This document shows positions 284-20,554 of a DNA stretch of 32,105 nucleotides, one piece after another. Every line of letters starts with the position of its first letter. Positions within the stretch are counted from its first letter, which is position 1. The DNA is taken from contig PJAB01000251.1 in assembly GCA_002887195.1 (NCBI GenBank), forward strand, positions 1 to 32,105, written 5' to 3'. The stretch comes from Chrysochromulina parva. Its lineage: Eukaryota; Haptophyta; Prymnesiales; Chrysochromulinaceae. The position numbers and the translations under genes are program-made. The notes under the pieces are model-generated. The model did not search any database. It worked only from the letters and a program-made list of their open reading frames with translations, and was not told the origin of the DNA.

Positions 284-970
284 ATGGACATCAACAAGGC
301 GCTGGCGTCACTGGGCGGCAAGGCCATTGAAGGGCCTTTCAAGGTCCAGGACATGAAGTCAGCGGAGTTCGCGCAGCCCAAGGTGCTGACCAAAAAGGAG
401 CAGGCAGCGCTTGATGAAAAGAAGAAGCTCGAGAAGGCCAAGGCCAAGGCCGCGGCGATGGTGGCTGGCCTGGCTCAGCCGGAGAAGAAGAAGAAGGAAA
501 AGAAGGACACGAAGGCTGCGACGGATGACTCCGCGGGCGAGCCGAGCGGCAGCGCGGACGCGGAGGGCGCGCCCTCTGTTGAGGCAGCCGCGGAGGGTGC
601 AGCGCCAAAGAAGGCGGGCAAGACTAAGGCAGCAGCGCCCGCGCGGGTGATCACCCCTGAGGAGCGCCAGCGCGCGATAGAGAAGCAGCGCCAGGCTGCC
701 GCAGCCGCCGAGCTCGCCTTCCAGCAGGCCTACGCCGCCGTCGCAGCCGGGGGCACGGCCATCACGCTGGACGTGGTGCCCATGGAGTACACTGTGCGGA
801 CAGCCGAGGAACTCGAGGCGGCGCGCCTGGCGGCCGAGGTGGCCAAGGCGGAAGATGCCAAGGCGGCAACGGAGCGCAAGCTCGAGGCAGCCATCCAGGC
901 TGCCATCGGCAAGAAGGGCTGCCAAGTGACGGTAGGCGACTGGGCTGTGCTGCGGCTCGCGATGGCATGA
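284..970 (+). CDS. Lys/Ala-rich hypothetical protein (228 aa)
   Basis: I do not recognise this family. The frame runs from an ATG at 284 to TGA at 970. The first 35 residues are of ordinary composition. Residues about 36-130 are rich in Lys, Ala and Glu, with runs such as EKKKKEKK. After residue 125 there are two likely amphipathic helices or coiled coils (around 127-147 and 170-205), followed by a short non-repetitive C-terminus ending in WAVLRLAMA. No signal peptide or membrane segment is visible. Codon use is GC-rich like its neighbours, and the reading frame is the only long ATG-started one on this strand here. It lies 241 bp upstream of a same-strand carrier gene. A charged nucleic-acid-binding or scaffold role is possible but cannot be shown from sequence. 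Confidence 0.6.
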   Translation: MDINKALASLGGKAIEGPFKVQDMKSAEFAQPKVLTKKEQAALDEKKKLEKAKAKAAAMVAGLAQPEKKKKEKKDTKAATDDSAGEPSGSADAEGAPSVEAAAEGAAPKKAGKTKAAAPARVITPEERQRAIEKQRQAAAAAELAFQQAYAAVAAGGTAITLDVVPMEYTVRTAEELEAARLAAEVAKAEDAKAATERKLEAAIQAAIGKKGCQVTVGDWAVLRLAMA

Positions 971-1211: not shown

Positions 1212-2117
1212 ATGGCGGCTCACATATCACTCAAGGTCACGACTCAGCCGATGCTGACACCCAAGCCCACCACCTCCGAAAGCAAGGGCGGCTGGCGCAC
1301 CGTTGCTGCTGGTGCAGGCGCTGGCGCCATTGACTGCTGCTTCACGATGCCCATGGACACCTTGTCAACGCAGATGCAGCTGCAAAAGTACCGCTCTCCG
1401 ATTGAGTGCACCCGGGCCATCGTGCAGGCCAATGGCATTATTGGCCTCTATAACGGCTTCTGGGCCTTCTTCTTGCAGTCGGCAGCCAAGACCTCAGTAC
1501 GGTTCTTCTCTTTCGAGTTGTTGTCTGACAACCTCAAGCATATCGGTGTGGACAGGAGCAAGTACCCTGGGCTGTCTTCGCTCGCATGCGGCCTCGGCTC
1601 GGGTGTCATCGAGTCCCTCTCGCTGACCGCGCCGACCGACCGCGTCAAGGTCCTGTCGCAGGCAATGTCGGCCCAGAAGGGTTCGGTACCCCTGACAGCG
1701 CTGCAGCTGGTGCGCGAGGGAGGCGTTGGCACACTCTACGTGGGCGCGACCGCCACGGCGCTGCGCCAATCGTCGAGCGTTGCCGTGCGCTTCTTCTGCT
1801 TTGGTGAGGTCAAGGCGGTGCTCTGCCGTGCACTCGGCCACGACGTCGGCAACGCTCCGGCGTGGGTCTCGTTTTTAGCCGGAGGGTGTGGCGGCGCGCT
1901 CTCAGTGTGCCTGAACAATCCCATCGACATCGCGAAATCGAAGATCCAGGCGGGCAAGCACTCAAGTATCATCCTCTGCCTGCAAGATTTTGTCCGCGAG
2001 CGAGGCTTCATCGGCCTGGCGTCCGGTCTCTCGGTACGCGTGCCGCGCCTCTTCCTCTCGCAGGCGATTCAGTTCAGCCTCGTGGACGTGTTCAAGAAGC
2101 TGTTGCAGAAATACTAG
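1212..2117 (+). CDS. Mitochondrial carrier family protein, citrate/tricarboxylate type (SLC25A1-like)
   Basis: This is an inner-membrane metabolite transporter of 301 aa with the usual three tandem repeats of about 100 residues. The family signature PX[D/E]XX[K/R] appears as PTDRVK (about residue 141) and PIDIAK (about 237). In the first repeat it is PMDTLS (47-52), with Ser where the basic residue belongs. Closest resemblance from memory is the citrate transport protein: KTSVRFFSFE corresponds to the conserved helix-2 VRF region, the ACGLGSGV segment to the start of repeat 2, and LRQSSSVAVRFF to the helix-4 region. This suggests citrate/malate-type exchange, which would feed cytosolic acetyl-CoA; substrate assignment is inference. 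A basic N-terminal extension of about 25 residues precedes the first repeat. The frame is intronless. It converges on the FAM91 gene downstream. Confidence 0.9.
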   Translation: MAAHISLKVTTQPMLTPKPTTSESKGGWRTVAAGAGAGAIDCCFTMPMDTLSTQMQLQKYRSPIECTRAIVQANGIIGLYNGFWAFFLQSAAKTSVRFFSFELLSDNLKHIGVDRSKYPGLSSLACGLGSGVIESLSLTAPTDRVKVLSQAMSAQKGSVPLTALQLVREGGVGTLYVGATATALRQSSSVAVRFFCFGEVKAVLCRALGHDVGNAPAWVSFLAGGCGGALSVCLNNPIDIAKSKIQAGKHSSIILCLQDFVRERGFIGLASGLSVRVPRLFLSQAIQFSLVDVFKKLLQKY

Positions 2118-2549: not shown

Positions 2550-5500
2550 TCACCTCGCCGCTTCGGCGAGCACTTGCATGCAGCGGCCGTCGAAGAAGAG
2601 CGGTACGCACGGGTACGTGACGCTCTCGGCCGAGTCGGCAAGCGTCACGTCGCTCTCCTCCGCGGTCGCGGTCTCCATGCCCCTGCCCGCAGCTTCCGCC
2701 TCGATGCCTGTGTACTCGTGCACGAAGGCGCGCACGCGCCGCAGCAGCGCGCGCACTGCGTCTGTGTGGGCCTGCAGCTGGCTCGCACTGAAGAGCTGTC
2801 GCTGCCGCACCTGCGGGGAAGGAGGCGAGGCGTCGTGGTGAGCACTTGCATGCAGCGCCGGTACGGCTCGCACTGAAGAGTAGTCGCTGCCGCACCTGCT
2901 CGCACACCGCCTCGCACGTGGGCACGTCGCAGAGTGGCAGCCCGAAGTGCAACATGAGGGGCACCCACGCCGTGCTAGGCGGCCCTCCCGCGTCCGTCGC
3001 CGCCTGCACACGGACCAGCTGGAGCATCCCTATAGACGATTCGAGGCCGAGGGCGTGCATGACGCGTCGAGCGGCGGCATGAGGACCCTCGCCGTAACGG
3101 CTCGCGTCCTCGTGAGCGCCTTCATGAGCGCCGTCATGGTCGCCCTCGTGAGCGTCCTCGTGTGCGCCCTCGGCCTCGGTGTCGGTGCGTGTGCTGCCCT
3201 CGCCTGTGGGCATGGCCGGCGAGGGCGTGGCGGCGGGCGTCGACTCGAGCCGCGGCGTCTCGGGGGCGTCGGCGACCGGCATGGGCAGCCTGGCCGTGCC
3301 GGCGCTGGCGTCGGCCACGTAGGCTTGCACCAGTAGAGGGGCGCGCGTGAGGAGCTCAGCGGCGACCGAGAGCAGGTGTGACGTGGAGGTCACGGCGGGC
3401 TCCCCGCCCCAGGGTGTGAGGAGGAGGTGTGAATACGGCCGCAACCCTTCCGGCACGCGCCGGAGCCGAGCGCCACGTGGCAGCAGGATCGAGGGCGGGC
3501 CGCAGCCGAGCGCCGTATAGAGCGCGAGCTGGAGCCACGGCGAGGTGAGGAGCGAGAATGTGGGCCCGAAGTGCATCACCGGCAGCCCGGCGGTGTACAC
3601 GTGTTCACAGAGGGGCTCCATCGGCGCCATCGAGACGAGCAGCGCGTACTGGCGCTGCAGCACGCGCGCGCGCGTGGCGCCATCGAGGGTGGCGAGTGAC
3701 TCGGTGCGCACCTGTGGGGCATTGGGGAGATGGCGCCGTAATGAGCACTTGCATGCTGAGGAGTCGCTCGGGCATAGGTGCGAGTGACTCGGTGCGCACG
3801 ATGTCGAGGGGCCGCTCAGTGGCAATCAGTGGCAATCAGTGGCAATCAGTGGCAATCAGTGGCAATCAGGTGCGCACGATGTCGAGGGGCCGCAGGCTGC
3901 CGTTGATCGCACACGCTGGGTCGCTGCGCAGGAAGAGGAGGGCGTGCCGCAGCGCGATCGCCTGGTCAAAGTACTCGAGGAGATCAGCTTCGTGGAACTG
4001 CGGTCGCTCCACCTGTGAGGAGGGAGGCCATCCGAGGCCATCAGTGGCCATCAGAGGCAATCTAAGGCAATCGGAGGAGATCTGCGGTCGCTCCACCTTC
4101 TCTGTGGCTGCGAGGAAGGCGTCGAGTGCCTCGTTGGGGATCTTGCCCACCTGTGAAGAGGGAGGCAATCAGAGGCAATTAGAGGCAATCAGAGGCAATC
4201 AGAGGCAATCAGAGGCGTTGGGGATCTTGCCCACCTCATACAGCGTGACCGCGTGCTGCTTGAGGCCGTCCGCCAGGTTGGACATCATGAGGCACGCCGC
4301 CAGCTTCGAATCGACGAGCAGGCCGATGCGCTGCAGCGGCGGCGCAGCCTCGCTCGCCGTGCGCGTACCCTCATCCGCCGGAGCTTTCGGCGCCGTCCTG
4401 GGCGCGCCCGCCGCAGCGCCATCGCCCGCAGCCGCCGGGTCAGGCGTGGCGCCTCCGCCTTCCGCGATATCTGCCCGAGATTTGCAGGCGCCCCCGCCTT
4501 CCGCGAGGTGATGCCACGAGGCATGCCACGCTGGCTCCGCCAGCGGCTTTGGCTCCGCTCCATTCTCTGACCCAGCGGGTGCGCTCGCCGTCGTGGCTGC
4601 CGTCGGCCGAGGAGGCGGCGGCGAGCTGAGCGGCGGCGCGGTGAGCTTGACAGCGAAGCCGAGCAAGCACGCGATCGAGACGGCGCGCAGGATGCGAGGG
4701 AGTGGCTGGCCCAGCAGCGATGCCACCTGTGGGGAAGGAGGTATGGCGTCGTGGTGAGCACTTGCATGCAGCGAGTGGCCCAGCAGCGACGCTACCTCCC
4801 CAACGGTCATGGCCTCGTCGTTGGATACGAAGACCTGTGAAGAGGAGGGGGGGGGGGGCGCCGTGGTGAGCGCTTGCATGCCGACGAGCAGCACCCCGTT
4901 TGGACGCAGAGCTCCGGCCGGTAGGGTACCGGTATTACCTCGTACAGCATCTTTTCGAGGTAGTCATGCCCGACGCGATTCATGACGAAGCCCTTGAGTG
5001 GCGGCACCGCGATCCGATCGCACGCGGCGACGGGCACGTCGTAGCGCACCAACCCGAGCGAGTACAGAGCGGGCAGCGCGTCGCGCGGCAGCTCGCCAGC
5101 GGGCAGAGCGCCCCCTGCCACCTGTGGGGAAGGAGGCGAGGCGTCGTGGTGAGCACTTGCATGCAGCGCCGGTACGGGCAGAGCGCCGCCTGCCAGCCGC
5201 ATGCAATGAGGGAGACCATCAGAGGCAATCAGAGGCAATCATCCGGTTCGGAGCGCCCCTTGCCACCTCGATCACTCCGAGCACGCTCAACTGCTCCGCG
5301 GACAAGCCATGCGGCCCCGCGACGTCCTTGCTGCCGCCCACCGCGGCGCCCTCGTCGTCAGCCCCGTCGGCGCCGAGCTCGTCCCCGTCATTGCTGGCTG
5401 CGTGGAGCGCCGTCGTGGGCGGCGGGACGGGCCCTCCGGACGCGGTGCCCACCACGGCGCCATTCACAGCCGCGGCGGCCCCGGAGGCGCCGTGGTGGGC

Positions 5501-6187
5501 AGCCGCGGCCTCTCGGGCCTCCTTGAGAGCTTGGCTGATGCGCTCGCCGATGGACGACCGGAGCGATTCCTGGCGCGCGGCGCCTTGCGCGCGCGCTGCG
5601 GCTCGCTGCGCGAGCAGCTTGTGCGCCGCCTTGGTCAGGTGCACCTGCCACCAGTGCAGCACCGGCATCGTAGGCAGCGCCGCCGCCGCCGGCAGCGAGC
5701 TAGCGATGATGGCGCGCCGACGCTTCCACAGCCAGCCCTTGCTGCGGCACTGGTTGAGGGCGTGCAGGAACTCGTTGCGCCCCACGCCTACCAGGCGCCC
5801 GCAGTCGGCCGCTGTGAAGTTGGGGATTGTGTCAAACGATTTTTCGGCGCGCATCGTCTCGATGAGCATCTCTTGGTAGTAATCAAAGGGCGTGATGGTG
5901 GGGAGGCGCGGGTTTCGGCCGAGCGCATCCGCGAGGTGGTACGGGTAGAGCATGCACTTCTCACGGCTTTTGCGAAGCAGCTCTTCGAGGTACGAGGCCT
6001 CGTCGCCTCCCAGCGCAGTGGACCACGGCCCCTGCACGCCAAGGCTGTGTGCACGAGCCGCCCGCTGCCACTCTCCTTCGCTGATGGATGCGCGCACGGC
6101 CTCTGGAAGCAGACCCCAGCGCCAGTCGGGGGGGTCCGCGTCCGCCGCCGCCTCGAGGCACTCGGCGAGAGCGAGAGGCATTGCCAT
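2550..6187 (-). CDS. FAM91A1-like: FAM91 family protein (FAM91A1 orthologue), eight exons
   Basis: FAM91A1 acts at the trans-Golgi with TBC1D23 and the WDR11 complex in capturing endosome-derived vesicles (known for animals). Exons as I read them, in transcript order: 6187-5267, 5121-4939, 4834-4796, 4726-4235, 4150-4097, 4012-3878, 3711-2896, 2810-2550. Joined, they give about 966 aa (human is roughly 840), all junctions in phase 0. The N-terminus has YPYHLADAL (81-89), the ITPFDYYQEM segment, KSFDTIPNFTAADCGRL and NQCRSKGW, all close to animal FAM91. Exon 2 has AVPPLKGFVMNRV. Exon 4 has LVDSKLAACLMMSNL, exon 6 FDQAIALRHALLFLR, and exon 7 LLVSMAPM and GPPSILLPRGARLRRVP. Low-complexity inserts (Pro/Ala-rich in exon 4, GAHED repeats in exon 7) explain the extra length. 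The stop is TGA at 2552-2550. Start: ATG at 6187, with a second in-frame ATG two codons later. Confidence 0.93.
2554..2570. repeat. Short hairpin overlapping the end of FAM91
   Basis: CTCGCCG, a three-base CTT loop, then CGGCGAG form a perfect 7-bp stem just inside the stop codon. Beside it, 2568-2585 equals 18 nt of the family A introner core. Confidence 0.5.
2811..2895 (-). other. FAM91 intron 7: family A introner-like intron (85 bp)
   Basis: Donor CAG|GTGCGG, acceptor CCCCGCAG|GTGCGG. It is flanked by a 35-bp direct duplication with two mismatches (2780-2814 and 2865-2899). The core at 2811-2858 differs at one position from the cores in FAM91 intron 1 and ARM intron 2. Splicing gives CEQ-VRQRQLFSAS. 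Confidence 0.9.
3712..3877 (-). other. FAM91 intron 6: nested family B + family A intron (166 bp)
   Basis: Donor ATC|GTGCGC, acceptor CCCCACAG|GTGCGC. Two overlapping duplications mark two insertions: 25 bp (3791-3815 and 3869-3893) around (TGATTGCCAC)n, and 20 bp (3692-3711 and 3780-3799) around a diverged family A core. Splicing gives RPLDI-VRTESLATLDG, as in FAM91. Confidence 0.88.
4013..4096 (-). other. FAM91 intron 5: family B intron (84 bp)
   Basis: Donor AAG|GTGGAG, acceptor CCTCACAG|GTGGAG. A 17-bp exact duplication (3998-4014 and 4082-4098) flanks degenerate TGATTGCC/TGATGGCC units. The length is a multiple of three with no in-frame stop. Splicing gives ATEK-VERPQFHEAD. Confidence 0.9.
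4151..4234 (-). other. FAM91 intron 4: family B (TGATTGCC-repeat) intron (84 bp)
   Basis: Donor GAG|GTGGGC, acceptor CTTCACAG|GTGGGC. An exact 21-bp duplication (4132-4152 and 4216-4236) surrounds about five TGATTGCCTC units. Retention reaches a stop quickly. Splicing gives LYE-VGKIPNEALD, matching FAM91. Confidence 0.9.
4727..4795 (-). other. FAM91 intron 3: family A introner-like intron (69 bp)
   Basis: Donor GAG|GTAGCG, acceptor CCCCACAG|GTGGCA. It is flanked by a 22-bp direct duplication (4707-4728 and 4776-4797, two mismatches). The length is a multiple of three with no in-frame stop, so retention would insert 23 residues rather than truncate. Splicing restores TVGE-VASLLGQPL. Confidence 0.87.
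4835..4938 (-). other. FAM91 intron 2: diverged family A intron (104 bp)
   Basis: Donor GAG|GTAATACC, acceptor CTTCACAG|GTCTTC. It carries a degenerate family A core (GCATGCAAGCGCTCACCACG) followed by a pyrimidine run of about 12 C. Only a weak remnant of a duplication remains: CTCTGCGTCCAAAC inside against GTCTTCGTATCCAAC at the exon start. Removal joins KMLYE to VFVSNDEAM, matching the animal protein at this point. Confidence 0.85.
5122..5266 (-). other. FAM91 intron 1: nested family B + family A introner-like intron (145 bp)
   Basis: Donor GAG|GTGGCA, acceptor CCCCACAG|GTGGCA. In transcript order it holds a copy of the downstream exon start, TGATTGCC units (family B), a second partly decayed copy of the exon start (5176-5197), then a family A core. 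Positions 5122-5169 match 13748-13795 in the ARM gene exactly over 48 nt. Removing it joins GVIE to VAGGALPAG in frame. Confidence 0.88.
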
Positions 6188-6218
6188 GTGAATTGGCCGT
6201 GAATCGTCAAACTCTTCT

Positions 6219-6240
6219 CAAGTCAAGTCAAGTCGACTTG
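6219..6240. promoter_or_regulatory. CAAGT repeat ending in a palindrome, in the FAM91/beta-helix divergent promoter
   Basis: Repeated CAAGT units end in the 12-bp perfect palindrome CAAGTCGACTTG. The spacer between the two divergent start codons (6187 and 6322) is only 134 bp. A similar repeat lies just upstream of the hydrolase start at 22728. A regulatory or 5' UTR role is inference. Confidence 0.35.
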
Positions 6241-6321
6241 GTTGCTAATTAAAGGCACTCACAGGGGGGGGTAGGAAGTTTTCCCCTCTTGTGGGGCGAG
6301 GACGCTTTGAACTTCCACAAA

Positions 6322-8841
6322 ATGCGGCCGCGCCTATTCCTTCTCGTCGCCGCCGCTTTGGGCGCGCGCGCGAGCGCCGAAAGAACGACCTCTACCCCCT
6401 TTGTCGGGGCTGAGGCACCTTGGACCCGGGCGAGCCGTCAGCTCTTCCTCGGCGTCAGTTCGCCTCCCCTGCCGTCACTCTGTACAGTCGACGCTTGCGA
6501 GTTCGCCTCGGAGGTCCCGAAGTGCGCGTACGACAACGACTGCGTCGACTGCGACGGGCAAACCGCGTCGCCGCCCGCGCCGCTACATTCCCCTGGCATA
6601 GCATGCACGAACAACTGTCTCAACGCCAGCGGCAGCTCGTGCAGCGACGGCGGTGGAACTCTGTTTGATGCAACCGACTACCTGCGAAGCCAAGTGCTGG
6701 TCCAGATCACCAACTTCACCGATGCATTGGTCGGCCTCTCGTTGAGGCGTGCCAATGCGCGCTCCGCTCCGCCCGCCTCGTCGCGGCTATCCATTGCAGA
6801 GGCGCCTACTTGCCAACTGGTGGCGTCCGCTCGCCTTTCGGTGGCGCCTGCTCATGGTTTGGACGGCGGCAGCATCATCCTCATTCCCCGGCAGCTTGTG
6901 TGTTGGGGGTGCATGCTGATGGCATGTTCGCTCATGGCATGGCACCATCGTTTCGCCAAGTCTCCTTACATTCGGTCTCAGCCTCGAGGGAAGCATGAAA
7001 AGCTCGTTCTCCTCAGCACTCTCCTTGCATTGTGCACCATGCTCCCATGCACCGAGGCCACCGACAATGACGTTCCCGTAATAAACTCCGTTCAGCATGT
7101 GCTCACGAGCCACCGCCGTGCGCTGCAGACCGCGGTGAGCACCGTCGCCGACCTGACCAGTGCACTCGCCAACACCGCCGTCGGCCGCATCGTCCTTGCC
7201 TCCGGCACCTACTACCTCACCGCCGAGCTCAGCATCACCAGGAGCGTCATCCTCGAGGCGGCGGCGGGAGCCACGGTCATCCTGAACGCACAAGGGAGCT
7301 CCTCGAGTCCGCGCCGTGTGCTGAACATCAACCCGGGCTCGTCGGGCGTCGTGCAACTGTTCGGGCTCAGGATCACGGGAGGCTACACTCTCACCGGAGG
7401 CGCCGGTGTCTTCGTCCAGGGTGGCACAGTGACCTTCTCATCGTGCATCATCAGTGAGAACACAGTGACCTCCTCATCAGGGTCTCAGGATGTTTATGGA
7501 GGCGGCGGTGTTTTCGTTGCATCTGGAACCGTCTCCATCATCAGCTCACAGATCTACTACAACTCAGCTAGCTTATCTACTAGCAATGGGGGCGGCGGTG
7601 TCTATGTCACTTCTGGCACGGTCACGTTCACATCTTCCTCGATATACGGGAACTCAGCTGGATACAGTGGAGGCGGTGGTGTCGCCTTCTTGGGAGGCAC
7701 TGTCTCAATCGTCAACTGCCAAGTGTATTCCAACCGAGCCGGCCACGGCGGCGGTATCCTTGTCGGGGGTGCCATAGTGGCCATCTCATCATCCACCATC
7801 AGTGGTAACACAGCTTCATATGATTGTTGCAATAATGGGCTGTATGGTCACAATGTCTACTTTTCATCTGGTCGCGTTTGCTCCTGGGCAACGACCCTCA
7901 CCGGCGTAAACCCATCCCTCACAACCTTTCCTTGCCCGGCACCCCCGCCTCCCTCGCCGCCCTCGCCGCCGCCCTCTGGGGGAGCACCGTTGCCGCCTCC
8001 ACCTTCGCCCTCGCCGCCTCCACCTTCGCCCTCGCCGCCTCCACCTTCGCCCTCAAATCCACCGCCATTGCCAGCGTCGCTTCCACCACCCTCACCGCCG
8101 CCGCCCTCGTTACCGCCGCAGCAGCCCTCACCTCCTTCTCGTCCGCCGCCTCCGTTGCCCCCACCGCCCTCCCCCCCTCCTCCTCGTCGGCCTCCGTCGC
8201 CCCCACCGCCCTCCCCCCCGCCGCCCTCGCCTCCACCCGCCCCTCCGAGCGTGACTCTGACGCCCAGCACCATCGTGCACAGCTTCTTGACCATCGTCAC
8301 AGTGAGCGGGATCGCAAGCAATGGCAACCACCTCGTCTTCCTACCTTCCGGCTCCCGGACTTGCGCGGGCGCAGCCTTCGCGCGTGCCACTCAGTTGGGC
8401 GGAACGATCAGCAACGGCACCGTCTCGGTCCAGCTTACCACCATCGGTCTCTATAAGACCTGCCTCTCAACGCTACCCAACCCAGTGTGGGATGATCAAT
8501 TTGATTACCTGTCGGCCACGCAGCTGTTGGTCATTAACGGATCTCCGCTACTTGCGCCTCCACCGCCTCCCAGCATGAGGTGCGGCCCTGGCACCTTCTT
8601 CAACTCCATCACCAACCAATGTGAGATCGCGTGCAGCCCAAGCAACGGCCGGCGCATGGCCACCGAGGTGCCACCCGAGATCGCCGACTCTTCCGATGAC
8701 GCCCAGATCCTTGCCAACCAAGTGTTCGACGCGGTGAGCAGCTACTATCTGGAGAAGCATCCGGAGGTCACAGCCAGCACCAAAGATGAGGAGCTCCGCT
8801 CACGACTCAAGCAGCTTTTTGGGCAGCCGGCGCTCGCATAG
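6322..8841 (+). CDS. Secreted Pro-rich beta-helix protein, 5' part of a probable spliced gene
   Basis: The first in-frame ATG (6322) begins MRPRLFLLVAAALGARASA, a clear signal peptide, so I use it rather than the upstream TTG. About residues 50-110 are Cys-rich, with CAYDNDCVDC and CTNNCLNASGSSCSDGG, like short Cys motifs known from microalgal surface proteins. A hydrophobic segment (KLVLLSTLLALCTMLPCTEA, about residues 231-250) looks like a second signal peptide and may mark a fusion or an alternative start. Residues about 275-525 form a parallel beta-helix with Gly/Ser/Thr/Val turns (GGGGVFVASGTVSIISS and similar). A (PPPPSP)n region spans about 540-643, followed by a beta-rich domain. The frame ends at TAG 8841. 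No catalytic residues are evident. It is probably extracellular matrix or cell surface. Confidence 0.75.
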   Translation: MRPRLFLLVAAALGARASAERTTSTPFVGAEAPWTRASRQLFLGVSSPPLPSLCTVDACEFASEVPKCAYDNDCVDCDGQTASPPAPLHSPGIACTNNCLNASGSSCSDGGGTLFDATDYLRSQVLVQITNFTDALVGLSLRRANARSAPPASSRLSIAEAPTCQLVASARLSVAPAHGLDGGSIILIPRQLVCWGCMLMACSLMAWHHRFAKSPYIRSQPRGKHEKLVLLSTLLALCTMLPCTEATDNDVPVINSVQHVLTSHRRALQTAVSTVADLTSALANTAVGRIVLASGTYYLTAELSITRSVILEAAAGATVILNAQGSSSSPRRVLNINPGSSGVVQLFGLRITGGYTLTGGAGVFVQGGTVTFSSCIISENTVTSSSGSQDVYGGGGVFVASGTVSIISSQIYYNSASLSTSNGGGGVYVTSGTVTFTSSSIYGNSAGYSGGGGVAFLGGTVSIVNCQVYSNRAGHGGGILVGGAIVAISSSTISGNTASYDCCNNGLYGHNVYFSSGRVCSWATTLTGVNPSLTTFPCPAPPPPSPPSPPPSGGAPLPPPPSPSPPPPSPSPPPPSPSNPPPLPASLPPPSPPPPSLPPQQPSPPSRPPPPLPPPPSPPPPRRPPSPPPPSPPPPSPPPAPPSVTLTPSTIVHSFLTIVTVSGIASNGNHLVFLPSGSRTCAGAAFARATQLGGTISNGTVSVQLTTIGLYKTCLSTLPNPVWDDQFDYLSATQLLVINGSPLLAPPPPPSMRCGPGTFFNSITNQCEIACSPSNGRRMATEVPPEIADSSDDAQILANQVFDAVSSYYLEKHPEVTASTKDEELRSRLKQLFGQPALA
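7938..8252 (+). repeat. Proline-rich (PPPPSP)n coding repeat 1
   Basis: Imperfect tandem CCNCCNTCG-type units encode poly-Pro/Ser, resembling hydroxyproline-rich glycoprotein or pherophorin spacers. It separates the beta-helix from the following beta-rich domain. Confidence 0.85.
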
Positions 8842-8858
8842 GGCAAGCGACCGTCGGC

Positions 8859-10157
8859 TTGTTTCCTTTGCCCATCCCTGCACCTTCCTTTTCAGAATTT
8901 GCGGCTCAACGCGAGCTGCATCCCAACCTACGCCGCCTCCAGAGCGCCCTGAGCACGTGCCAGGCGGTGGCGCGACAGTCGTTCTGTCAGCCGCCCAGTG
9001 CGCCACCTTCACCATCGCCGCCGCCGCCATCACCGCCGCCGCCATCGCCGCCGCCGCCATCGCCATCGCCTCCGCCGCCATCGCCATCGCCTCCGCCGCC
9101 ATTGCCGCCGCCGCCATCACCACCGCCGCCCTCGACATCGCCCAGCCCGCAGTCGCCAGCACCCTCGCCACCGCCGCCCTTGCGCTCGCCTGCTCCGCCC
9201 TCGCCCCCACCGTCGCCCTCACTCCCGCCGCCCTCGGAGTCGCCACCGCCGCCGGCGATGAGCGTCGTCGAGCTCGCCCTGCGGCTCGCCGGCGACGTCT
9301 CCTCCTTCACCCCGAGCGTGCGGACCGAGATGAAGAGCGCGATCGCAGCCCGGGCGGACGTTGACCCGTCGGCGGTGACGGTGACTGTAACGTCGGGCAG
9401 CGTCATCGTCGGCGTGCGCGTCCTCACGCCCACGGTCATGGCGACCTCGGTGCAGTCGGCGATGGCAAGCGCAACGAGCAGCCCAAGCAGCGCGACCGCC
9501 ATGCTCGCGAGCGTCACCGGCGTCTCGATCGCCGTGCTTGCGGTGGTGACGTCACCCACCATCACGGACGTCGCATCACCGCCGCCGCAGCCCACTTTCT
9601 CGCCAACTTTCTCGCCCTCGCCCTCGCCGCCCCCGCAACGGCCGCCAGGCGCGCTAAACAGCGCCGTTGGTGAGGCCATCACGATCCTCGTCAGCGCCGT
9701 GCTCGTCGCGGTAGTTGCGCTGCTGTGCTGCCTGGCGATGGTCTGCTGGTGGACGAGGCGCAGACAAGTCGAGCTGCGGCGCAAAGACGTCAACAACTGG
9801 CTCCGCAATACGTCCGCGAGCACGGTCTCCGCAGAGGAGGCTCATCAGCAAAAGGAGGAGGCACAGCATGTGGCGGCGGTGTTGGCGCGGGAGGGTGCGA
9901 CGATCGTGCATGAGCAGCAGTGGGGGCTCTCCTCCGCACACTCGGCTCCCGACCTCTCCGTTGTGAACGACTCTCATGACTACCATCTCGATGCAGGCGA
10001 GTACCAGCTGAGCGACTATGAGTTTCGCAAGGAGGGGGACGACGGCGGGGGCCACGGCGTTGAACAAAGCGGGGGCCGCGCCTCGTCAGCAGGCGGCCGC
10101 GTCACCGGCAGCAGCAGCGGCCCATCGGGGAGCATGGACCTCTCTATACAGCTGTAA
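8859..10157 (+). CDS. Probable 3' exon(s) of the beta-helix gene: Pro-rich, SEA-like, TM and cytoplasmic tail
   Basis: The open frame has no ATG before 9259, beyond its Pro-rich region; 8859 itself is TTG. It is therefore unlikely to be an independent gene. A pyrimidine-rich tract ending in TTTTCAG at 8895 could be an acceptor, but no consensus donor upstream gives the matching phase without a stop, so the junction is unresolved. The encoded order is a short Leu/Gln segment, (PPPPSP)n, a region of about 100 residues with VTVTSGSVIVGVRV resembling a domain seen in other algal surface proteins, Pro-rich linker, one TM helix (around 9662-9750, VSAVLVAVVALLCCLAMV) with a basic stop-transfer TRRRQ, and an acidic/Gly-rich cytoplasmic tail. 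The topology needs the upstream signal peptide, which supports one gene. Confidence 0.65.
   Translation: MFPLPIPAPSFSEFAAQRELHPNLRRLQSALSTCQAVARQSFCQPPSAPPSPSPPPPSPPPPSPPPPSPSPPPPSPSPPPPLPPPPSPPPPSTSPSPQSPAPSPPPPLRSPAPPSPPPSPSLPPPSESPPPPAMSVVELALRLAGDVSSFTPSVRTEMKSAIAARADVDPSAVTVTVTSGSVIVGVRVLTPTVMATSVQSAMASATSSPSSATAMLASVTGVSIAVLAVVTSPTITDVASPPPQPTFSPTFSPSPSPPPQRPPGALNSAVGEAITILVSAVLVAVVALLCCLAMVCWWTRRRQVELRRKDVNNWLRNTSASTVSAEEAHQQKEEAQHVAAVLAREGATIVHEQQWGLSSAHSAPDLSVVNDSHDYHLDAGEYQLSDYEFRKEGDDGGGHGVEQSGGRASSAGGRVTGSSSGPSGSMDLSIQL
8998..9258 (+). repeat. Proline-rich (PPPPSP)n coding repeat 2
   Basis: CCGCCATCN-type tandem units encode a second poly-Pro/Ser spacer. Its antisense reads as long Gly-rich open frames that should be ignored. 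Confidence 0.85.
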
Positions 10158-10819
10158 ACGTTAAAACAGGCCGCTGCGCGCTGGCGCGCGCGGGGGGGGG
10201 GCTACAGTGATCACACCCGCGAGACACGGACGCTCGAGACACACGGAAGACACACGAGACTGCATCACACACGCAAGAGTGAGGAGAAGCATGGGTGTCA
10301 GTGGTTTATGGTACTGGCACGCGCGACTCGCGCGGACTGGAGATTTCGTCGGTTTGGGAAAGTGGTTCCGCCACAAGGCAGAGCTCCGCGATCGGACCGG
10401 ATGCCGGGATGGGCGCACGGATCTCTGTGCAGACTAATTGAGTGCACGCCGCGAGTCAGAGCCGTGAACGGCACGGTCCATGGTTCGGACATGGACCGGC
10501 GACCGTGGACGTCGGAAGATGAAGCTTGAAGGTTGAAGCGTGACCATTGCAAACAACGAACTGTGAAGTGACCTGAGGTGACCTGCGCCATACAACCTCT
10601 AGTACAAAGTACATGTTACCCACAATGTGCGAACAGATGAAGACTTGCGGCCTCTCTCGACTCCACATGTCGATTCCTCTGTCTCCGCGCGCCGAGCACC
10701 TCCAGGGCTGTCCTTAGACGATACGTTGGGAGCGGGCGTGGTACGCCGCCGCGGGGGTACGCCGCCGCGGCCGCCGCGCCGGCCACGTGTGGCCGTGTGG
10801 CGCCCGCCACATGGCACGT
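10158..10819. other. Convergent intergenic region
   Basis: This 662-bp stretch lies between convergent genes. It has a G run at about 10192-10201, a CACACG/GAGACAC-rich stretch (10213-10280), and CCGCCGCGG-type palindromic GC repeats (10745-10785). Short open frames occur on both strands but none has coding character. Confidence 0.5.
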
Positions 10820-13800
10820 TCACGACTCTGTCAGCTCGCGCAGCGCCTGCTTGGCGCGCGCGGCGAGGACCATGGTGTCGCGCCGCTTCGTGTCCCAAAG
10901 GGCGATCTGCTCGAGCACCCGCCGGCCACCCAGCCTGAGCACAGCCTTCTGCGAGGGCTCGGCGGAGACCAGCGCGAGGAGCAGGTTCGCCGAGCCCGTG
11001 CGCACCTCAGGATTGAGCGCCTGCACATCACCCGCCTGAAGGATGGTCATGAGGAGCTTGGTGCCATCTTCGGTCGCACAGAACTTCTCGCGCCCCTCCC
11101 GGCTGCCCTCTACGAGGTGCTCAAGCACCGAGAGACACTTCCCAAGCGCGTCCTCGTGCTTGATGCCGTGCGCCACGGTGGCAACCGCGAGGATCGCGCC
11201 GACCGCGCCGTGTCGGCACGCGAGCGACAGCGCCTTGCCATCCTTGAGCGAGGTCGCGTTCAGCAGCACGTAGAGGGCCTGCTCCTGCAAGTTGAAGGGC
11301 ACGGCGTCACAGAGGAGCGGCAGCAGGCAGTCCATCCCGTGCTCAGTGAGCAACGCGCGCTGATGGGCCTCGGCCGTGTAGACTGTGCCGTTGAGTACAG
11401 GCAGGCAGCGCTCGAGGAGCGCGATCGCCGTACGGCACGTGACCAACGTCTCCGTCGGCACTGACGAGAGGGCACCCGCGCCCGCCGCGGCCGCCGCACC
11501 ACCCCGGCGCCCAGTCGACGGCCGCAACGCGGTGGAGGCGGCGCCGTCCCGGGCGCCACTGGTACCGGTACCTCCGCCCTCAGCGCGCGCCGCGAAAAAG
11601 GAGCCGCCGCCGACGGCCGCCGAGGCGGGGCGGCGAGTCGGCTGATGCTGCTGCTGCTCATGATGCTGCTGCTGATGCTGTGACGTGGCGGGCGCGGGCG
11701 CGTGCCGAGCGATCAAACTATTGAGCGAGAGGGTCTCAATGTCATCCTCGATGTCTTCCATGAGAAGCTTGTCGGCGCCGTCCCGGGCGCCGCTGGCCGC
11801 GCCGCTGGCCGTGGAGGGTGTGCCGGCGCGCGCACCGCCGATGCCGGGCGCGCCAGCCGCCGCCTCGTCCGTCTCGTCCTCCTCGTCCTCGTCCTCGTCC
11901 TCGTCCGCAGCCATGGCCGCCGCAAGCGCGGCCTTGAGATCCGGCGTGCGCGCGTGGAGATCGGCGAGCTGCTTGGCGGCGTCGCGGCTCAAGTGGAGGA
12001 GCTGCTGCACGCCCGAGTCGCCCAAGTGCAGGATCGTCGAATAGGCCGTCTTCGAGAGCTCGTCGTCGTCGTCGTCGTTGAGGCAGTAGAGCAGCGACTC
12101 GATGCCGCCGTGCAAGACAACGTCGCGCGCGTTCGCGGAGTTATCGCGCACCTGATGAGGGAGGCAATCATCATGCAATCAGCATGCAATCAGTCAGGGA
12201 GGCAATCATCATGCAATCAGCATACAATCAGCATGCAATCAGCATGCAATCAGCATGCAATCAGCATGCAATCACGTTCGTCGCGCGCTATCGCGCACCA
12301 GGTTGCCCAGGCAGAAGGCGGCCGTCTTGCGCGCCTCGTAGAGAGGGCTCGCCAGCTGCTGGTGCAGCAGCGGCACGCCCCCGCACGCGCGCACGAGCTC
12401 CTGCACCGTCGCGTTGCAGTACGACAGGTTGACGAGCGCCATCATCGCGTAGAGGGCGAGCTCGACCGCTTGGCCCACCGCTTCCGCGCCGCCCTCGGCC
12501 GAGCCCGGGGCAAGCCCCTCAACGGCCGCGAGCCCCTCAGCGGCGGCCGCATCCGCCCTCTTCTGCCCCAGGGCCGCAGCCCGGCCTTCGGCCGAGAGGA
12601 GGGAGAGTAGGGTGCGAATGGCGGCCTCGGTCCCATACAGACGTTGGTTGGTCGGATGGTTCCACGCGACGTGCGAGAGCAGCAGGCACGCGGCGCACAC
12701 GATCCGGGGCGCGCCCGTCGCACTGAGCAGCCGATGGACCGCCTCGGCTGCCTCACGCGAGCCGAGGGCGTCCTGAGTGGCGCTGTTGGTGTCGGCCATG
12801 TTGATGAGCAGGTTGAGCGCTCCCGCGGCGAGCGACGCACCCACGCCCTCGCCGCCATCGCCGCTCTCGTGGCGCGCCAGCAGCGAGAGGCAAGCCGGGA
12901 GCACCCCAAGCTCGAGCAGCGCCTCCTGGTTGCCCACGTTACGGTACGCCACGTTGTTGAGCGCGTCGCACGCCGTCTCGGTCACTTTCCACAGGTCGAT
13001 CGCGCCGCTGGGCGCCACCGCCGTCGTCGTGCGGGCGGAGCGGCCGTCCGGGCCCGAGATTTTACCCGAGATCTCGTCCGACGCCCTCTCGCCGCGCACG
13101 CGCCCCGCGGTGGTCGGGCGTGAGCGGCCCGCGGTGGTCGGCCGCGATTGCGCGGCCGTGACCGCCGACGGGGCCCCACACGTGGCCGCTGGCTCAACGC
13201 GCGTCGGAGTGCCGTGAATGCCCGCTCGCCCACGCCGCGCGCCCATGCCGGCGCTGCCCATGGCCGCGCCTCCCGCAGCCCCCATGTTGCCGCCCATCCC
13301 GTCGAGGCCGTCGGCGCCGCGCGTCACGAGCGCTGGCGGCGAGTGGCGAGGGAGGGAGGCGACGCAGTGCTTGAGCGCCGTAGCGAGCGGCTCGAGCCCC
13401 GCCACCGAGCGGATGTAGTCCTGGTTGGTGCGCGAGGACAGCACGATGTGTGCAACCGCCTCGAGCGCTGCGTCGAGCACTGGCAGGGTCACGTCGTCGG
13501 CTGGGTACGCTTGGATAGTGCGCAGCACCTGCAGCAGCACCTCCTCGGTGCGCATCTCGTCGCGCGCGTGCGCCGACTCGGCCGCGAGCAGGCATAGGAT
13601 GCGCAGCGAGGTGGCCTTGACGTCGGTGTTGTAGTCGCGCAAGCACTCGGCGAGCTCAGCGATGCCTTGCTTGCGAAGGAAGAGGATGCGCGCGGGCGGC
13701 GAGCGCTGAATGAGCGCGTGGCACGCGAGGCACGCATGCGAGAGCACCTGTGGGGAAGGAGGCGAGGCGTCGTGGTGAGCACTTGCATGCAGCGCTGCAG

Positions 13801-15385
13801 GCACGCGAGGCACGCATGCGAAAGCACCTCCTCGTCAATGTTGGACACGCAGCGGATCATGAGCTCGAGCGTCTGGGTCCCGTGCATGTGCACGAGTAGG
13901 TAGGGTGCCTCCCCCTTTGAAGGGAGTGAGCGAGCGAGGAGCTTGAGGCTCTTGACCACTTCGTCACTGTGGTAATGGTTGAGCCGGATGTGCTCGATCG
14001 CCTCGAACATCTCCTGGTGCAGCGTGTAGAGCGCGGCCAACTCGCTGCGCAGCTCGTGCGTGTGGCCCGCCTTGGCGGCACGCGAGCTCACCTTCTCAGC
14101 ACGTTGGAGCACCGAGGACTGCATCGGCTTGTTCTCGAGCTGGCTGTTGAGCACGAGGAGAAGGCACGCCTGCGACACGATCGTGTCCGGGGTGGGGTGC
14201 GCCTCGTGGTGCGCCTCGCCATTGTCCAGGTTGCTGCTTGCGGGCGCGCTCGCCGCGGCCGACTGGTCGATGTACTTGAGGCATGCGTCCTGGGGGCGGG
14301 AGGGGACGGAGATGGGGGAGCTCAAGGAGGAGATGAAAGAGGAAAGAGCTCAAGGCGGCGATGAAAGAGCTCAAGGCGGCGATGAAAGAGCTCAAGGCGG
14401 AGATGAAAGAGCTAAAGGAGGAGACCAGCGGTGGGGCGCGTGGGGCATTCGGGCGCGGCGGCGGGTGAGGGCGGGGCGGTGCCAAGGCGCTTACGATGGT
14501 CCCCGCCTCGAGGAGCATGGTCTGCGACTGCGGCGTGCACCAGACGAGCGTTGCCGCTGCGAGGAGCACCTGCTCGGTGGCGAACGTCAGCGAGGGCTGC
14601 CCCTGGGCGACGGTCATCGAGCGCGTCGTCGTGAGCAAGGGCACCAGGTCGATCAGCGAGCGCAAGGCGCCGCCCTGCGTGAAGGCCTTCTGGGCTTGAC
14701 TGTTTGCCGACGAGACATTCGAGACGAGCTCGCAAATGTTGCCCGTGAGCGAGTCCCATTGCGCGGACGAGCCGGAGAGAGGCATTGGTCGCGAGGGGAG
14801 CGCGGTGCCGGGCCGCGCGAGCGTGCGCGTGTAGTGCGTGATGGCCGCATTGAGCATGCGCGTCACGACCGCGACGCCGTCGGCGGCGATGAAGATGGAG
14901 GCAGCGCTCGCAGGGTGGTAAAAGGTACAGTAGGAGAGCACGTTGCACGCGCGGTCGAGGATGTCGGGGCCTTCCGCGTCGTAGATGAGGTCCTCGTAGT
15001 GCGAGAGCGTGGTCACGAGGTTCTTGATGCCGTTGGGCATCTTGAGAAACGGCTTCAGGTTGGACGTCGCATTGCACAGCAGGCACTCGAGCAGCTGGAC
15101 GACGAGGCCGACAGGCACGCGCTGTCGAACGTCGACGCATTTGCGCACCGCGATGGGCCCGCCGAGCCGCGCGGCCGTGTCGAGCAGCTCGACTAGCACC
15201 GCGAGCGTCGGGAAGCGCTTGCCGCCGATGGCCTCGAGCAGCGCCGCATTGGCGCCGTCGCAAAAGTAGCGGAGCTGATCGAGCGCGGCCCAGCGCAACT
15301 CACTGGCGTCGTCCGCGATGCCGTCGAGGCACGTCGTCAAGCGCTGCGCGTCTGTCGTCGAGAATGCAGGCTCGGGCTTGGGCAT
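10820..15385 (-). CDS. Armadillo-repeat protein (about 1377 aa), four exons
   Basis: Exons in transcript order are 15385-14495, 14289-13828, 13747-12299 and 12151-10820, all in phase 0. The translation is mostly alpha-helical, with repeated ARM/HEAT-like units: for example LVVQLLECLLCNATSNLKPFL, ALYAMMALVNLSYCNATVQE, KTAAFCLGNLVRDNSANARD, and LNATSLKDGKALSLACRHG. The pattern of Leu/Ala-rich helices with Asn near the helix-3 end is typical of armadillo repeats. Exon 3 contains Gly/Ala-rich and Arg/Thr-rich low-complexity inserts. Exon 4 has an acidic run (DEDEDEDEEDETDEA) and a His/Gln-rich run. No catalytic domain or membrane segment is visible. A scaffold role is likely, but I cannot name the subfamily. 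It is divergent from the GBF1 gene with 281 bp between starts. Confidence 0.82.
12152..12298 (-). other. ARM intron 3: family B (TGATTGCATGC) intron (147 bp)
   Basis: Donor CTG|GTGCGC, acceptor CTCATCAG|GTGCGC. It is filled with TGATTGCATGC units and contains an internal duplication of about 35 bp. The flanking copies have diverged but still share TATCGCGCACC in plus orientation. Splicing gives CLGNL-VRDNSANARD. Confidence 0.88.
13748..13827 (-). other. ARM intron 2: family A introner-like intron (80 bp)
   Basis: Donor GAG|GTGCTT, acceptor CCCCACAG|GTGCTC. It is flanked by a 29-bp duplication with one mismatch (13721-13749 and 13801-13829). The 48 nt at 13748-13795 are identical to FAM91 intron 1. 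Splicing gives NIDEE-VLSHACLACHAL. Confidence 0.9.
14290..14494 (-). other. ARM intron 1 with 21-nt tandem repeats (205 bp)
   Basis: Donor ATC|GTAAGCGCC, acceptor CCGCCCCCAG|GACGCA. It differs from the introner families: there is no flanking duplication and no core. About 14321-14420 holds a 21-nt tandem unit, AGCTCAAGGCGGCGATGAAA in plus orientation, four to five copies, giving a pyrimidine-rich transcript strand. Splicing gives EAGTI-DACLKYIDQ. Confidence 0.75.
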
Positions 15386-18600: not shown

Positions 18601-20554
18601 AAGCGGCTGCGCGAAAAGTGCCTGCTCGCGGGCGGCGCGCTCTTCGCGACCGCGCACTCGAGCGCGCCGGCGCTCACGAGCGCGCATCACTGGCTTCCCG
18701 TGGTGGAGGCGCTCTGCACGCTGCACGAGATGGAACTCCTCCCGAGCAGCCTGTGCGCCGACCCGGTGCTCGGCCGCTGCTGGGACGACGCCAAGGAGAA
18801 GCCCAAGCTCTCCGCGCAGCCGCCCAAGCTGGCCTCGTCCTCGTCCTTCTCGCTCTGGGGCGCCGTCACTTACTTGGTCGGCTCGGCTGAACCCGACCGT
18901 ACGGCAGAGCTGCGCTTGCAGCGCGCGATCGAGCACGCGCGCGCCGAGGTGGGCGGCTACAAGCTGCCCGAGCTGCTCGCAAGCACGACGGCGATGACCG
19001 AGGCCTCGCTCGAGGCGCTCCTCGCCGCGCTCCTCGCCGCGCACGACGGCAGCGCGCCTCTCGGAGGCGCCGACGCCGCGCGCGCCGCGTTGGGCATCCG
19101 GCCCCTCGAGGGGGAGGGCGCGGATGCGGCCCCAACCGCGCCCGGCACGGCGCGGCGCGCGAGCCTGCTGCTGCAGCTGCTCGCCGAGGTGACGATCCAC
19201 AACGGGCACCGCTTCGGCGCGCTCTGGCCGCGCATGGCGCCGGTGCTCGATACGGCGCTCGGTGAGTCGCCGCCCCGCGCCCTCGCACGTGGGGCGGTGC
19301 TCGCGTCGCTACGGATGGCCCTCCGGCTGCTGCCGAGCCATCCCGAGACGCTGCCGCTCTTGCTGCCACCGCTCGCGACGACCGTTGAGGCCAAGGGCGT
19401 CCTCGTCGCCCCCGCGGTCGACATGATGGCCGCAGGCATCGCCGAGCTCCTGCAGCCAAGCGTCGTCTCGAGCGTCGATGAGTCGTCGTCGCGCGTGCTC
19501 CTCGCGCTGGCCTCGTCGCCCGACGTGCTCGCCTCCAAAGCAGCGGCCGCCGCGACGCTCAACGCGCTCAACGCCCTCGTCCTCGCCTCCAATGCCACCG
19601 CTGCAGGCTCCGGCTCACCGCTGGCGGGCTGCTTCGCGGGCGTGATGAGCGCGGTCATCAGGCACGCGGCGTCGGACGCGACTCCACTCGAGCACTGATT
19701 GCCTCTGATGACACCCTTGATTGCCTCTGATGACACCCTTGATTGCCTCCCTCATCAGGCACGCGGCGTCGGACGCGACTCCACTCGAGCACGCGATCCG
19801 AGCTGTCGATCTCATCTCCGAGATGCATGCCTCACTGCGCACGCTCGCCGTCGCGGGCGCGCTGCCTGCGGGCGCGCTCGCGCCGCTGCCGCCGACGGTC
19901 GACCTAACGACCGCCGCGCTCGCGCCGCACGGCCCGTGGCTGCGCATGTGGTTGCCGTGGCTGCGCGGGCTCGCCTCCCTGTGCGTCGTCTCACGGAATG
20001 CCGTGCGCGACGCGGCGATCGTCGCGCTTCAGCGCGCGCTCCTCCACCCCGACGTGCGCAGCGAGCCGGCGGAGGTGTGGGCGGCGGCATTCGAGGGCGT
20101 CGTCTTCCCGATGCTCGCCGAGGTGCTGCACCGCTCGGTGGGGGGGGAGCTCGACGACGAGCGGCTCATGCTGCGTGCCGTCACGCTCTTGTCCAAGGGG
20201 CTGCTCCATCACCTCGCCGGCCTGCTCAGCCTCCCAACGTTTTCGCTGCTATGGCTGCGCGCGCTTGAGCTGCTCCAGTCATACACCCACGCGCCCAACA
20301 ACGAGCTGCTCCTCGAAGCGGTGCCCGAGACCCTTAAGAATATGCTGCTTGTGATGGCCACGGCGGGCGCCTTCGATGCGACCGGCCCGCCCGGTACTGG
20401 CGAGCAGTCGCTCGCATCGATCACGAAGGCGGTCATCGAGGGCTTCTGCCCCGAGCTCACCGCGGCGCCCGACGTTGCGCAGATCTGGGGGGGTGTACCC
20501 GCCGCACCGGCCGAGGCCGCCGAGGGTGGGACGGTCCCCGCCGAGGCGGCGTGA
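15667..20554 (+). CDS. GBF1-like: GBF1/GNOM-type Sec7 ARF guanine-nucleotide exchange factor, two exons
   Basis: It activates ARF GTPases at the cis-Golgi to recruit COPI (known for GBF1). Exons are 15667-19661 and 19759-20554, giving about 1596 aa. The start is the first in-frame ATG (MARGELRDIVSFEIAS), whose following YIEPFLETIRQENTSG matches the DCB domain. Sec7 spans about residues 598-780. It has the motif FRLPGEAQKID with the catalytic glutamic finger at about Glu687, and FANSDAAYVLAFAIIMLNTD. C-terminal HDS regions include WLPWLRGLASLC, LQRALLHPDV, LSKGLLHHLAGLLSLPTF and the GBF-specific PETLKNMLLVMATAGAF. Two Ala/Pro-rich inserts (about residues 195-335 and 800-840) are lineage-specific. 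It shares a short divergent spacer with the ARM gene. Confidence 0.93.
19662..19758 (+). other. GBF1 intron: family B intron with GC-AG ends and a 41-bp exact duplication (97 bp)
   Basis: A 41-bp exact duplication (19655-19695 and 19752-19792) surrounds TGATTGCCTC/TGATGACACCCT units. The junction is TCATCAG|GCACGC at both ends, so the simplest intron is GC-AG. An alternative GT donor inside the first copy (GGC|GTCGGA) would keep frame but repeat HAA. Without splicing the frame stops at 19698; with it, PLEH runs into AIRAVDLISEM. Confidence 0.87.

What the first reader, a model, noticed from the sequence alone, without database searches (positions are those of the whole stretch)
2811..13827. 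A mobile introner family (A) spread through two genes
Six introns (five in FAM91, one in ARM) carry the same core around GCATGCAAGTGCTCACC with a pyrimidine-rich CCCCACAG end, always in the sense orientation. A 48-nt stretch is identical between 5122-5169 and 13748-13795, and a third copy (2811-2858) differs at one position. Unrelated introns should not match like this, so recent copying is the best explanation. That introners exist in some algae is established knowledge; this sequence family I do not recognise.
Basis: partly seen in the sequence, partly recalled or inferred. Interest (0 to 1): 0.9.

Follow-up and report, generated by a model that had tools for sequence, protein, structure and literature searches.

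The report
Introns copied with long target duplications
In a small freshwater alga, pieces of existing introns seem to be pasted into new genes, most pastes duplicate a stretch of the gene they hit, and that duplicate supplies one of the two splice sites, so the birth of new introns can be studied.

Summary
The 48-nt identity and the six core-bearing introns are as described. The 17-nt core occurs 641 times exactly in the 45-Mb assembly and its reversed control 0 times. The locus is that of the haptophyte Chrysochromulina tobinii or a very close strain.

Lengths vary: 13-45 nt, median 24, in 39 cases of one class. In class A the element brings the acceptor and the duplication the donor; in class B the reverse. 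Copies without an element splice site are in-frame in 17 of 26 units. Minisatellite introns of another sequence show the same duplications.

Proteins of near relatives run unbroken across two of these intron sites. One FAM91 intron carries exon sequence of another gene, so its template was DNA or unspliced RNA.

Best reading: introners made by templated insertion at staggered nicks, then filtered by splicing. Inverted repeats and fixed short duplications were not found. Splicing lacks RNA evidence here.

The parts
2550..6187 (-). FAM91 gene; spliced frame of 966 codons over eight exons, seven introns, all phase 0 (lower end reckoned from the exon lengths)
   Evidence: homologues P0069-P0073 carry PF14647/PF14648; P0069-P0072 aligned
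2811..2895 (-). class A introner; 35-nt duplication (33 of 35 alike), copies at 2865-2899 and 2780-2814; core 2837-2853
3712..3877 (-). compound intron: TGATTGCC minisatellite part plus class A introner (core 3740-3756, 2 mismatches); exact 20-nt duplication at 3780-3799 and 3692-3711; a 25-nt duplication flanks the minisatellite part
4013..4096 (-). minisatellite-type intron; first 15 nt repeat the first 15 nt of the downstream exon
4151..4234 (-). minisatellite-type intron; 21-nt exon duplication
4727..4795 (-). class A introner, 69 nt; duplication (20 of 22 alike) at 4776-4797 and 4707-4728; core 4753-4769
4835..4938 (-). class A-like introner without a long duplication; holds 7 nt of another gene's exon plus that gene's private duplication, filler and core (core 4865-4881); matching copy is L130 on contig C1387
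5122..5266 (-). compound intron: minisatellite part then class A introner (core 5148-5164); duplication (20 of 21 alike) at 5175-5195 and 5100-5120
10820..15385 (-). ARM-repeat gene; spliced frame of 1377 codons (lower end reckoned from the exon lengths)
   Evidence: relative P0074 matches ARM-type Pfam families, one of them above its cut-off
13748..13827 (-). class A introner in the ARM gene; duplication (29 of 30 alike) at 13800-13829 and 13720-13749; core 13774-13790; site unbroken in relatives P0074 and P0075
12152..12298 (-). minisatellite-type intron in the ARM gene; only 10-11 nt of exact exon duplication, below the threshold used; site unbroken in relatives P0074 and P0075
19662..19758 (+). 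minisatellite-type intron in a Sec7-like gene (name recalled), flanked by an exact 41-nt duplication (19655-19695 and 19752-19792); donor read as GC
   Evidence: splice sites inferred
2565..2581 (-). core-like 17-mer (1 mismatch) in the coding end of FAM91

Best explanation
These are introners (sequence-similar introns that multiply) made by templated insertion. Shown: a short core-bearing sequence sits in many places between two copies of a piece of the target, typically 13-45 nt; where it looks like an intron, one splice site belongs to the insert and the other to the duplicated target; where the insert has no splice site, the unit is more often a multiple of three. Inferred: two nicks on opposite strands, 13-45 nt apart, leave overhangs that are filled in (the duplication), and the gap is bridged by copying a piece of an existing intron, from DNA or unspliced RNA, with at least one ragged end. 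Selection then keeps inserts that splice out exactly or keep frame. The core probably carries the branch point (CTCAC, A about 27 nt from the acceptor). Whether a LINE-type reverse transcriptase or a repair polymerase does the copying is open; the second rival below is therefore a special case of this statement.
For: Core 641 exact, control 0. Flanking duplications: score 14 or more in 87 of 117 copies against 7 of 230 mismatched pairs; on the enlarged set 103 of 143 against 18 of 422. Lengths 13-45 (39 of 41 class A cases at 90% identity or more), 13-35 (16 of 16 class B), 13-72 (31 of 34 unassigned, which include arrays). Splice registers: 32 units with the donor at the start of the duplication and 15 with the acceptor at its end, of 100; 13 of those 15 carry an element donor CAG or AAG|GT[AG]CGT. 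Unit length a multiple of 3 in 17 of 26 units without an element splice site against 23 of 74 with one. Minisatellite introns: 18 of 25 against 24 of 476. Relatives P0074 and P0075 run unbroken across the 13748 and 12152 sites with the duplicated motif once. FAM91 intron 4835-4938 holds exon plus intron sequence of L130. Overlap of 5-9 nt at six first-insertion ragged junctions (L072, L096, L020, L091, L042, L007).
Against: No RNA evidence of splicing. About a quarter of copies show no duplication at the threshold (30 of 117; 40 of 143), and the 4835-4938 event has at most 2-4 nt (inspection). 29 of 50 ragged-junction rows have filler instead of overlap. No local-donor bias beyond the window's own four copies. 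The core keeps similar ends in unspliced copies, which a fully ragged process would not predict.
Confidence: 0.6

Rival explanations
1. A nonautonomous DNA transposon (MITE-like introner), as proposed for Micromonas and Aureococcus: a transposase moves the element and makes a short target duplication that supplies one splice site.
For: Splice-site capture from the target duplication is a published introner mode (PMC9860276). One inverted pair of cores was seen (L059), and the core is half of a palindrome (inspection). No transposase search was made, so an enzyme is not excluded.
Against: Duplication length varies, 13-45 nt. Minisatellite introns have the same duplications.
Confidence: 0.15
2. 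Target-primed reverse transcription by a LINE-type enzyme acting in trans on intron-containing transcripts, giving variable duplications and one ragged end. (A special case of the best explanation, so the odds overlap.)
For: Variable-length duplications and ragged ends; five reverse-transcriptase matches in the assembly, two kinds, with FVDD or YADD motifs. The 4835-4938 copy could come from unspliced pre-mRNA.
Against: A tail or shared 3' end with these loci was not looked for. 13-45 nt is long for LINE duplications (recalled).
Confidence: 0.3
3. Reverse splicing of excised intron RNA followed by reverse transcription, as proposed for fungal introner-like elements.
For: One end often coincides with a splice site; sense bias among the decided copies.
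Against: It predicts whole introns without target duplication. One copy includes the donor gene's exon beyond the splice site. Antisense, mostly in-frame copies exist.
Confidence: 0.05
4. Ordinary introns plus chance or assembly artefact: shared pyrimidine ends, low-complexity repeats, or misassembled duplications.
For: The genome is GC-rich and rich in minisatellites; the assembly is from 454 and Illumina reads and fragmented.
Against: 641 exact 17-mers against 0; mismatched-pair controls; duplications often differ between copies (14 of 32 class A pairs identical, median identity 0.97), which a misassembly would not explain.
Confidence: 0.03

Closest known systems
Introners of diverse eukaryotes (Gozashti et al. 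2022, PMC9860276; outline, section 8 and passages read)
   Same: Similar introns at many unrelated sites; one splice site from the element and the other from the target duplication, in both polarities across species; a Chrysochromulina sp. family carries its donor and co-opts its acceptor.
   Different: Duplications of 3-9 bp for previously characterised families, 4 and 8 bp in their pictured examples; here 13-45 nt and variable. Here both polarities occur among copies sharing one core, with in-frame unspliced copies and a copy carrying another gene's exon. 'tobin' does not occur in their main text; their supplements were not seen.
Direct repeats at intron borders (Rogers and Bendich 2025, PMC11782384; abstract and passages read)
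   Same: Reports direct repeats of 4-30 bp (mean 11.4) at or near the borders of 213 introns of all classes and proposes insertion with double-strand break repair; the general idea is thus in print.
   Different: Repeats were found by eye at 70% similarity in single introns. Here longer duplications recur with the same insert, are tested against mismatched pairs, and supply a splice site.
Micromonas introner elements (PMC4815162; passages read)
   Same: Short repeated introns, thousands of copies, much of the sequence not needed for splicing.
   Different: No long target duplication is mentioned in the passages seen.
Amoebophrya introners (PMC7789003; passages read)
   Same: Repeated introns with direct repeats overlapping the boundaries.
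   Different: Direct repeats 3-5 nt, inverted repeats 8-20 nt, non-canonical splice sites; here mainly GT-AG, no inverted repeat found, longer duplications.

Membership tests
Introner (broad sense) | Group of highly similar introns at unrelated positions in one genome | tested here: met
Introner (broad sense) | Spliced from mRNA | not testable with these tools
   Indirect only: restored frames and contiguous homologues
Introner (broad sense) | Recent gain, presence/absence between relatives | tested here: met
   At protein level: P0074 and P0075 unbroken at two sites; P0069 unbroken at three FAM91 sites but reads into the intron at 4151-4234. The DNA of those contigs was not seen, and loss was not excluded.
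MITE-type introner | Terminal inverted repeats | tested here: not met
   on typed consensi
MITE-type introner | Short target duplication (3-9 bp) | tested here: not met
   13-45 nt, variable (nothing under about 12 nt could be detected, so short ones among the remaining copies are not excluded)
MITE-type introner | Autonomous element with transposase and the same ends | not tested
   no transposase search made
Reverse-spliced introner-like element | No target duplication, whole-intron copies | tested here: not met
LINE-mobilised retrocopy | Variable-length target duplication and one truncated end | tested here: met
LINE-mobilised retrocopy | Reverse transcriptase in the genome | tested here: met
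   five matches over the cut-off; of two rechecked, L131 is over it (32.9) and L134 just under (29.0 against 29.6)
LINE-mobilised retrocopy | Tail or 3' sequence shared with the LINE | not tested
   none

The most novel reading that the evidence does not exclude
This genome turns ordinary staggered-nick repair into an intron factory: any abundant intron fragment, whether the core family or the minisatellite family, can be pasted with a 13-45-nt duplication that supplies the missing splice site. No transposase or dedicated mobile element would be needed, and splicing and reading frame would be only the filters.
Probability: 0.4. Interest if true: 0.9.

Novelty: new variant of a known kind. Interest (0 to 1): 0.75.

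Why it matters
How introns arise is a long-standing question. Introners are the best-documented source, and published families point mainly to DNA transposons with short duplications. Here the duplications are long and variable, two insert families share them, both splice-capture polarities occur among copies of one core, and copies without splice sites lean to in-frame lengths, as expected if insertion comes first and selection second. Near relatives appear to lack some of the insertions, so the process could be caught and timed in culturable algae.

Tried and rejected
First codon-bias test used a wrong reading frame and is replaced, where 68 of 139 copies stay undecided.

Local-donor hypothesis (nearby introns as templates): tested on the 72 of 150 copies with a recognised acceptor arm. 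Only the window's own four copies are unusually alike (six pairs at 0.90-1.00); the other same-contig pairs lie within the different-contig range (28 against 2518 pairs). Not kept as a general claim.

Microhomology: the mean is inflated by tandem arrays, and its null counts matches on one side of the junction only. Counting first insertions, six junctions overlap by 5-9 nt (null for 4 or more: 0.035); 29 of 50 rows have filler. Suggestive only.

In-frame class: the class without an element splice site has 26 units, 17 of them multiples of 3 (P about 0.0008; Fisher P 0.005 against the other classes). By hand, after seeing the data, I set aside 12 units in compound arrays or with visible splice sites (L003, L004, L043 twice, L065 twice, L099 twice, L100, L067, L019, L070); the remaining 14 are all multiples of 3 (L005, L007, L018, L020, L024, L026 twice, L038, L042, L045, L071, L072 twice, L074). 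Because of the hindsight, 17 of 26 is the safer number; the 15-of-15 and 12-of-12 probabilities printed are not used. Several of the 14 have an interior or antisense GT-AG or GC-AG register (L005, L018, L020, L024, L026, L045, L071), so 'no splice site' means none carried by the element; L042 has no open frame across the stretch tested.

labels some class A copies with mismatched duplication edges as 'none' or 'antisense'; the element-based labels are used for the frame test; one of 25 rows (w3960) was cut badly, and three matches (L110, L117, L128) lie at least partly in the repeat; without those three, 15 of 25.

Viral contigs: one IMG/VR contig with the core at its end, probably chimeric.

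Literature: in the listings of searches, and in the passages read of six papers, I saw no description of 13-45-nt duplications at introners; PMC11782384 reports direct repeats up to 30 bp at introns in general. Subscription papers (Huff 2016, Roy 2023, Gozashti 2025, Daphnia break-repair work, all recalled) were not seen.

Full report
What is there. The window (C251 of an unnamed 45.07-Mb, 2199-contig assembly) holds two minus-strand genes, FAM91 and an ARM-repeat gene, with introns that share the core GCATGCAAGTGCTCACC. The organism is Chrysochromulina tobinii or nearly so: a protein deposited under that name, P0002, matches the window's mitochondrial carrier at 100% over 82% of the query and begins with the neighbouring window gene (gene order by inspection). 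The published genome is 59 Mb, 3472 contigs, 63.4% GC, on average one intron per gene (PMC4580454, passages); the assembly held here is smaller.

Family size. The exact 17-mer occurs 641 times and its reversed control never. A donor-side module of 24 nt occurs 117 times within two mismatches, control 0. A 27-nt stretch of the minisatellite has 2872 overlapping matches within three mismatches, control 0. The first 100 core places were listed; I fetched the surroundings of those on C5 to C235 plus the window, and left out seven on C236 to C241. With 20 donor-module places and the loci L130 and L136 this gave 150 distinct core copies. The sample leans to long contigs.

Duplications. I compared the 110 nt upstream of each core with the 110 nt downstream. 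Score 14 or more: 87 of 117 copies, against 7 of 230 pairs made from different loci. With the larger set and ungapped matching over 120 nt: 103 of 143 against 18 of 422 (tandem arrays and element-to-element matches are included on both sides). Of 110 copies at score 12 or more, 91 remained after dropping duplications that contain element words. Those of 90% identity or more measure 13-45 nt, median 24 (39 of 41 class A), 13-35, median 20.5 (16 of 16 class B) and 13-72, median 32 (31 of 34 unassigned); the lower limit is set by detection. Identity within pairs runs from 100% (14 of 32 class A, 9 of 15 class B) downwards, so the insertions probably differ in age.

Three outcomes. Class A: exon | GT-duplication, filler, core, pyrimidines, CCCCACAG | GT-duplication, exon; the donor comes from the target and the acceptor from the element. 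Class B: duplication-AG | GTACGTTGATTGCC..., core, duplication-AG | exon; the donor comes from the element and the acceptor from the target. Class C: duplication, core, duplication with no element splice site. By element content the repeat unit is a multiple of 3 in 17 of 26 class C units, 11 of 43 A, 8 of 24 B and 4 of 7 with both. The six strongly antisense copies of 139 come from five loci; four of these (L045, L018, L042, L072) are class C and one (L059) is an inverted pair of cores. Otherwise 65 copies are strongly sense and 68 undecided. The simplest reading is that insertion happens without regard to splicing and selection keeps what splices out or stays in frame.

Same process, other insert. 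The sampled minisatellite introns were chosen by a different sequence, yet 18 of 25 have flanking duplications against 24 of 476 mismatched pairs (15 of 25 if three matches in the repeat are dropped). The two insert types are not wholly unrelated: the class B donor module itself contains TGATTGCC. In the Sec7-like gene the duplication is an exact 41 nt. The duplication thus seems to belong to the insertion process rather than to one element.

Sites without the insert in relatives. P0074 (JGI, 5.8-kb contig) and P0075 (ENA, 28.2-kb contig) match the spliced ARM protein at 98% and 94% over 75% of it and run unbroken through the sites of the introns at 13748-13827 and 12152-12298, with each duplicated motif present once. 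The window's introns there are 80 nt, out of frame, and 147 nt with stops, so they cannot be in those frames. The two proteins begin at the same codon, read as V in one and M in the other, as prokaryote-style gene calls do at GTG; with a 28-kb contig this points to unspliced calls on DNA (inference). P0069, a FAM91 relative, is unbroken at the first three intron sites but reads into the fourth intron. I could not see the DNA of these contigs. More distant FAM91 homologues P0070 to P0072 align through all seven sites, with an indel of a few residues beside the first.

A copy with its origin written in it. The FAM91 intron 4835-4938 matches contig C1387 at 95%. At C1387 the intron has a duplication of its own downstream exon. 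The FAM91 copy contains seven bases of that gene's upstream exon, its private duplication, its filler and the core. The direction is therefore C1387 (or its like) to FAM91, and the template was genomic DNA or unspliced RNA, not an excised intron. This event has at most 2-4 nt of duplication, unlike most. A second pair, C1211 and the FAM91 copy at 3740 (89.9%), shares filler but its direction is unclear.

Mechanism. Variable duplications imply two staggered nicks and fill-in. Ragged inner ends, filler, and overlaps of 5-9 nt at six first-insertion junctions suggest templated copying and end joining. Reverse-transcriptase sequences are present, so target-primed reverse transcription in trans is a live alternative to a repair polymerase. 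The core's CTCAC lies a median 27 nt (22-40, n = 39 of 43) from the acceptor in class A, a plausible branch point (motif recalled). But unspliced copies keep similar core ends, so selection for branching alone does not explain the core; this remains unexplained.

Comparison. Published introners recruit one splice site from duplications of 3-9 bp and mostly look like DNA transposons (PMC9860276). Amoebophrya introners have 3-5-nt direct repeats and inverted repeats (PMC7789003). Direct repeats of 4-30 bp at introns in general, and insertion with break repair, have been proposed (PMC11782384). Here inverted repeats were not found and duplications are longer and recur with the same insert. It works like an introner with splice-site capture, but it is not filed as a transposon-type introner, because short duplications and inverted repeats were tested and not met.

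Limits. Class boundaries and the in-frame test were set after looking at the data. The species name rests on protein identity and gene order. No transposase search was made.

Noticed in passing
window 2565-2581 (minus): The last codons of FAM91 hold a core-like 17-mer with one mismatch, giving a C-terminus (CMQVLAEAAR) unlike the aligned homologues; possibly an insertion used as coding sequence, or an unrecognised donor GAG|GTGAGG at the stop.
   Followed up: no
window 284-968 and 1212-2114 (+): The deposited C. tobinii protein P0002 joins parts of two separate window genes, so published gene models here may hold false introns.
   Followed up: no
L089 about 4360-4554 (IMG/VR contig): A mostly bacterial-looking contig ends in the core with an acceptor, beside a TGACGAACCC minisatellite flanked by its own duplication of about 36 nt: a third insert type, or a chimeric contig from a relative.
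   Followed up: partly
L136 (C1211:2000-3500), L043, L058, L085, L091, L099, L103: Insertions repeat at the same site, giving tandem arrays of duplication plus core and stacks of several intron types in one short stretch.
   Followed up: partly
L059 283-363: Two cores face each other 47 nt apart as an inverted pair.
   Followed up: no
window 14290-14494 (minus): The ARM gene's first intron has a GTAAGC donor, an internal 21-nt repeat and no exon duplication noticed; it may be an older kind of intron in this genome.
   Followed up: no
window 27045-27148: A 30-nt inverted repeat, 97% complementary, with 44 nt between the arms.
   Followed up: no
window about 6320-10160 (+): Proline-rich reading frames with CCG/CCT repeats, by inspection.
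   Followed up: no
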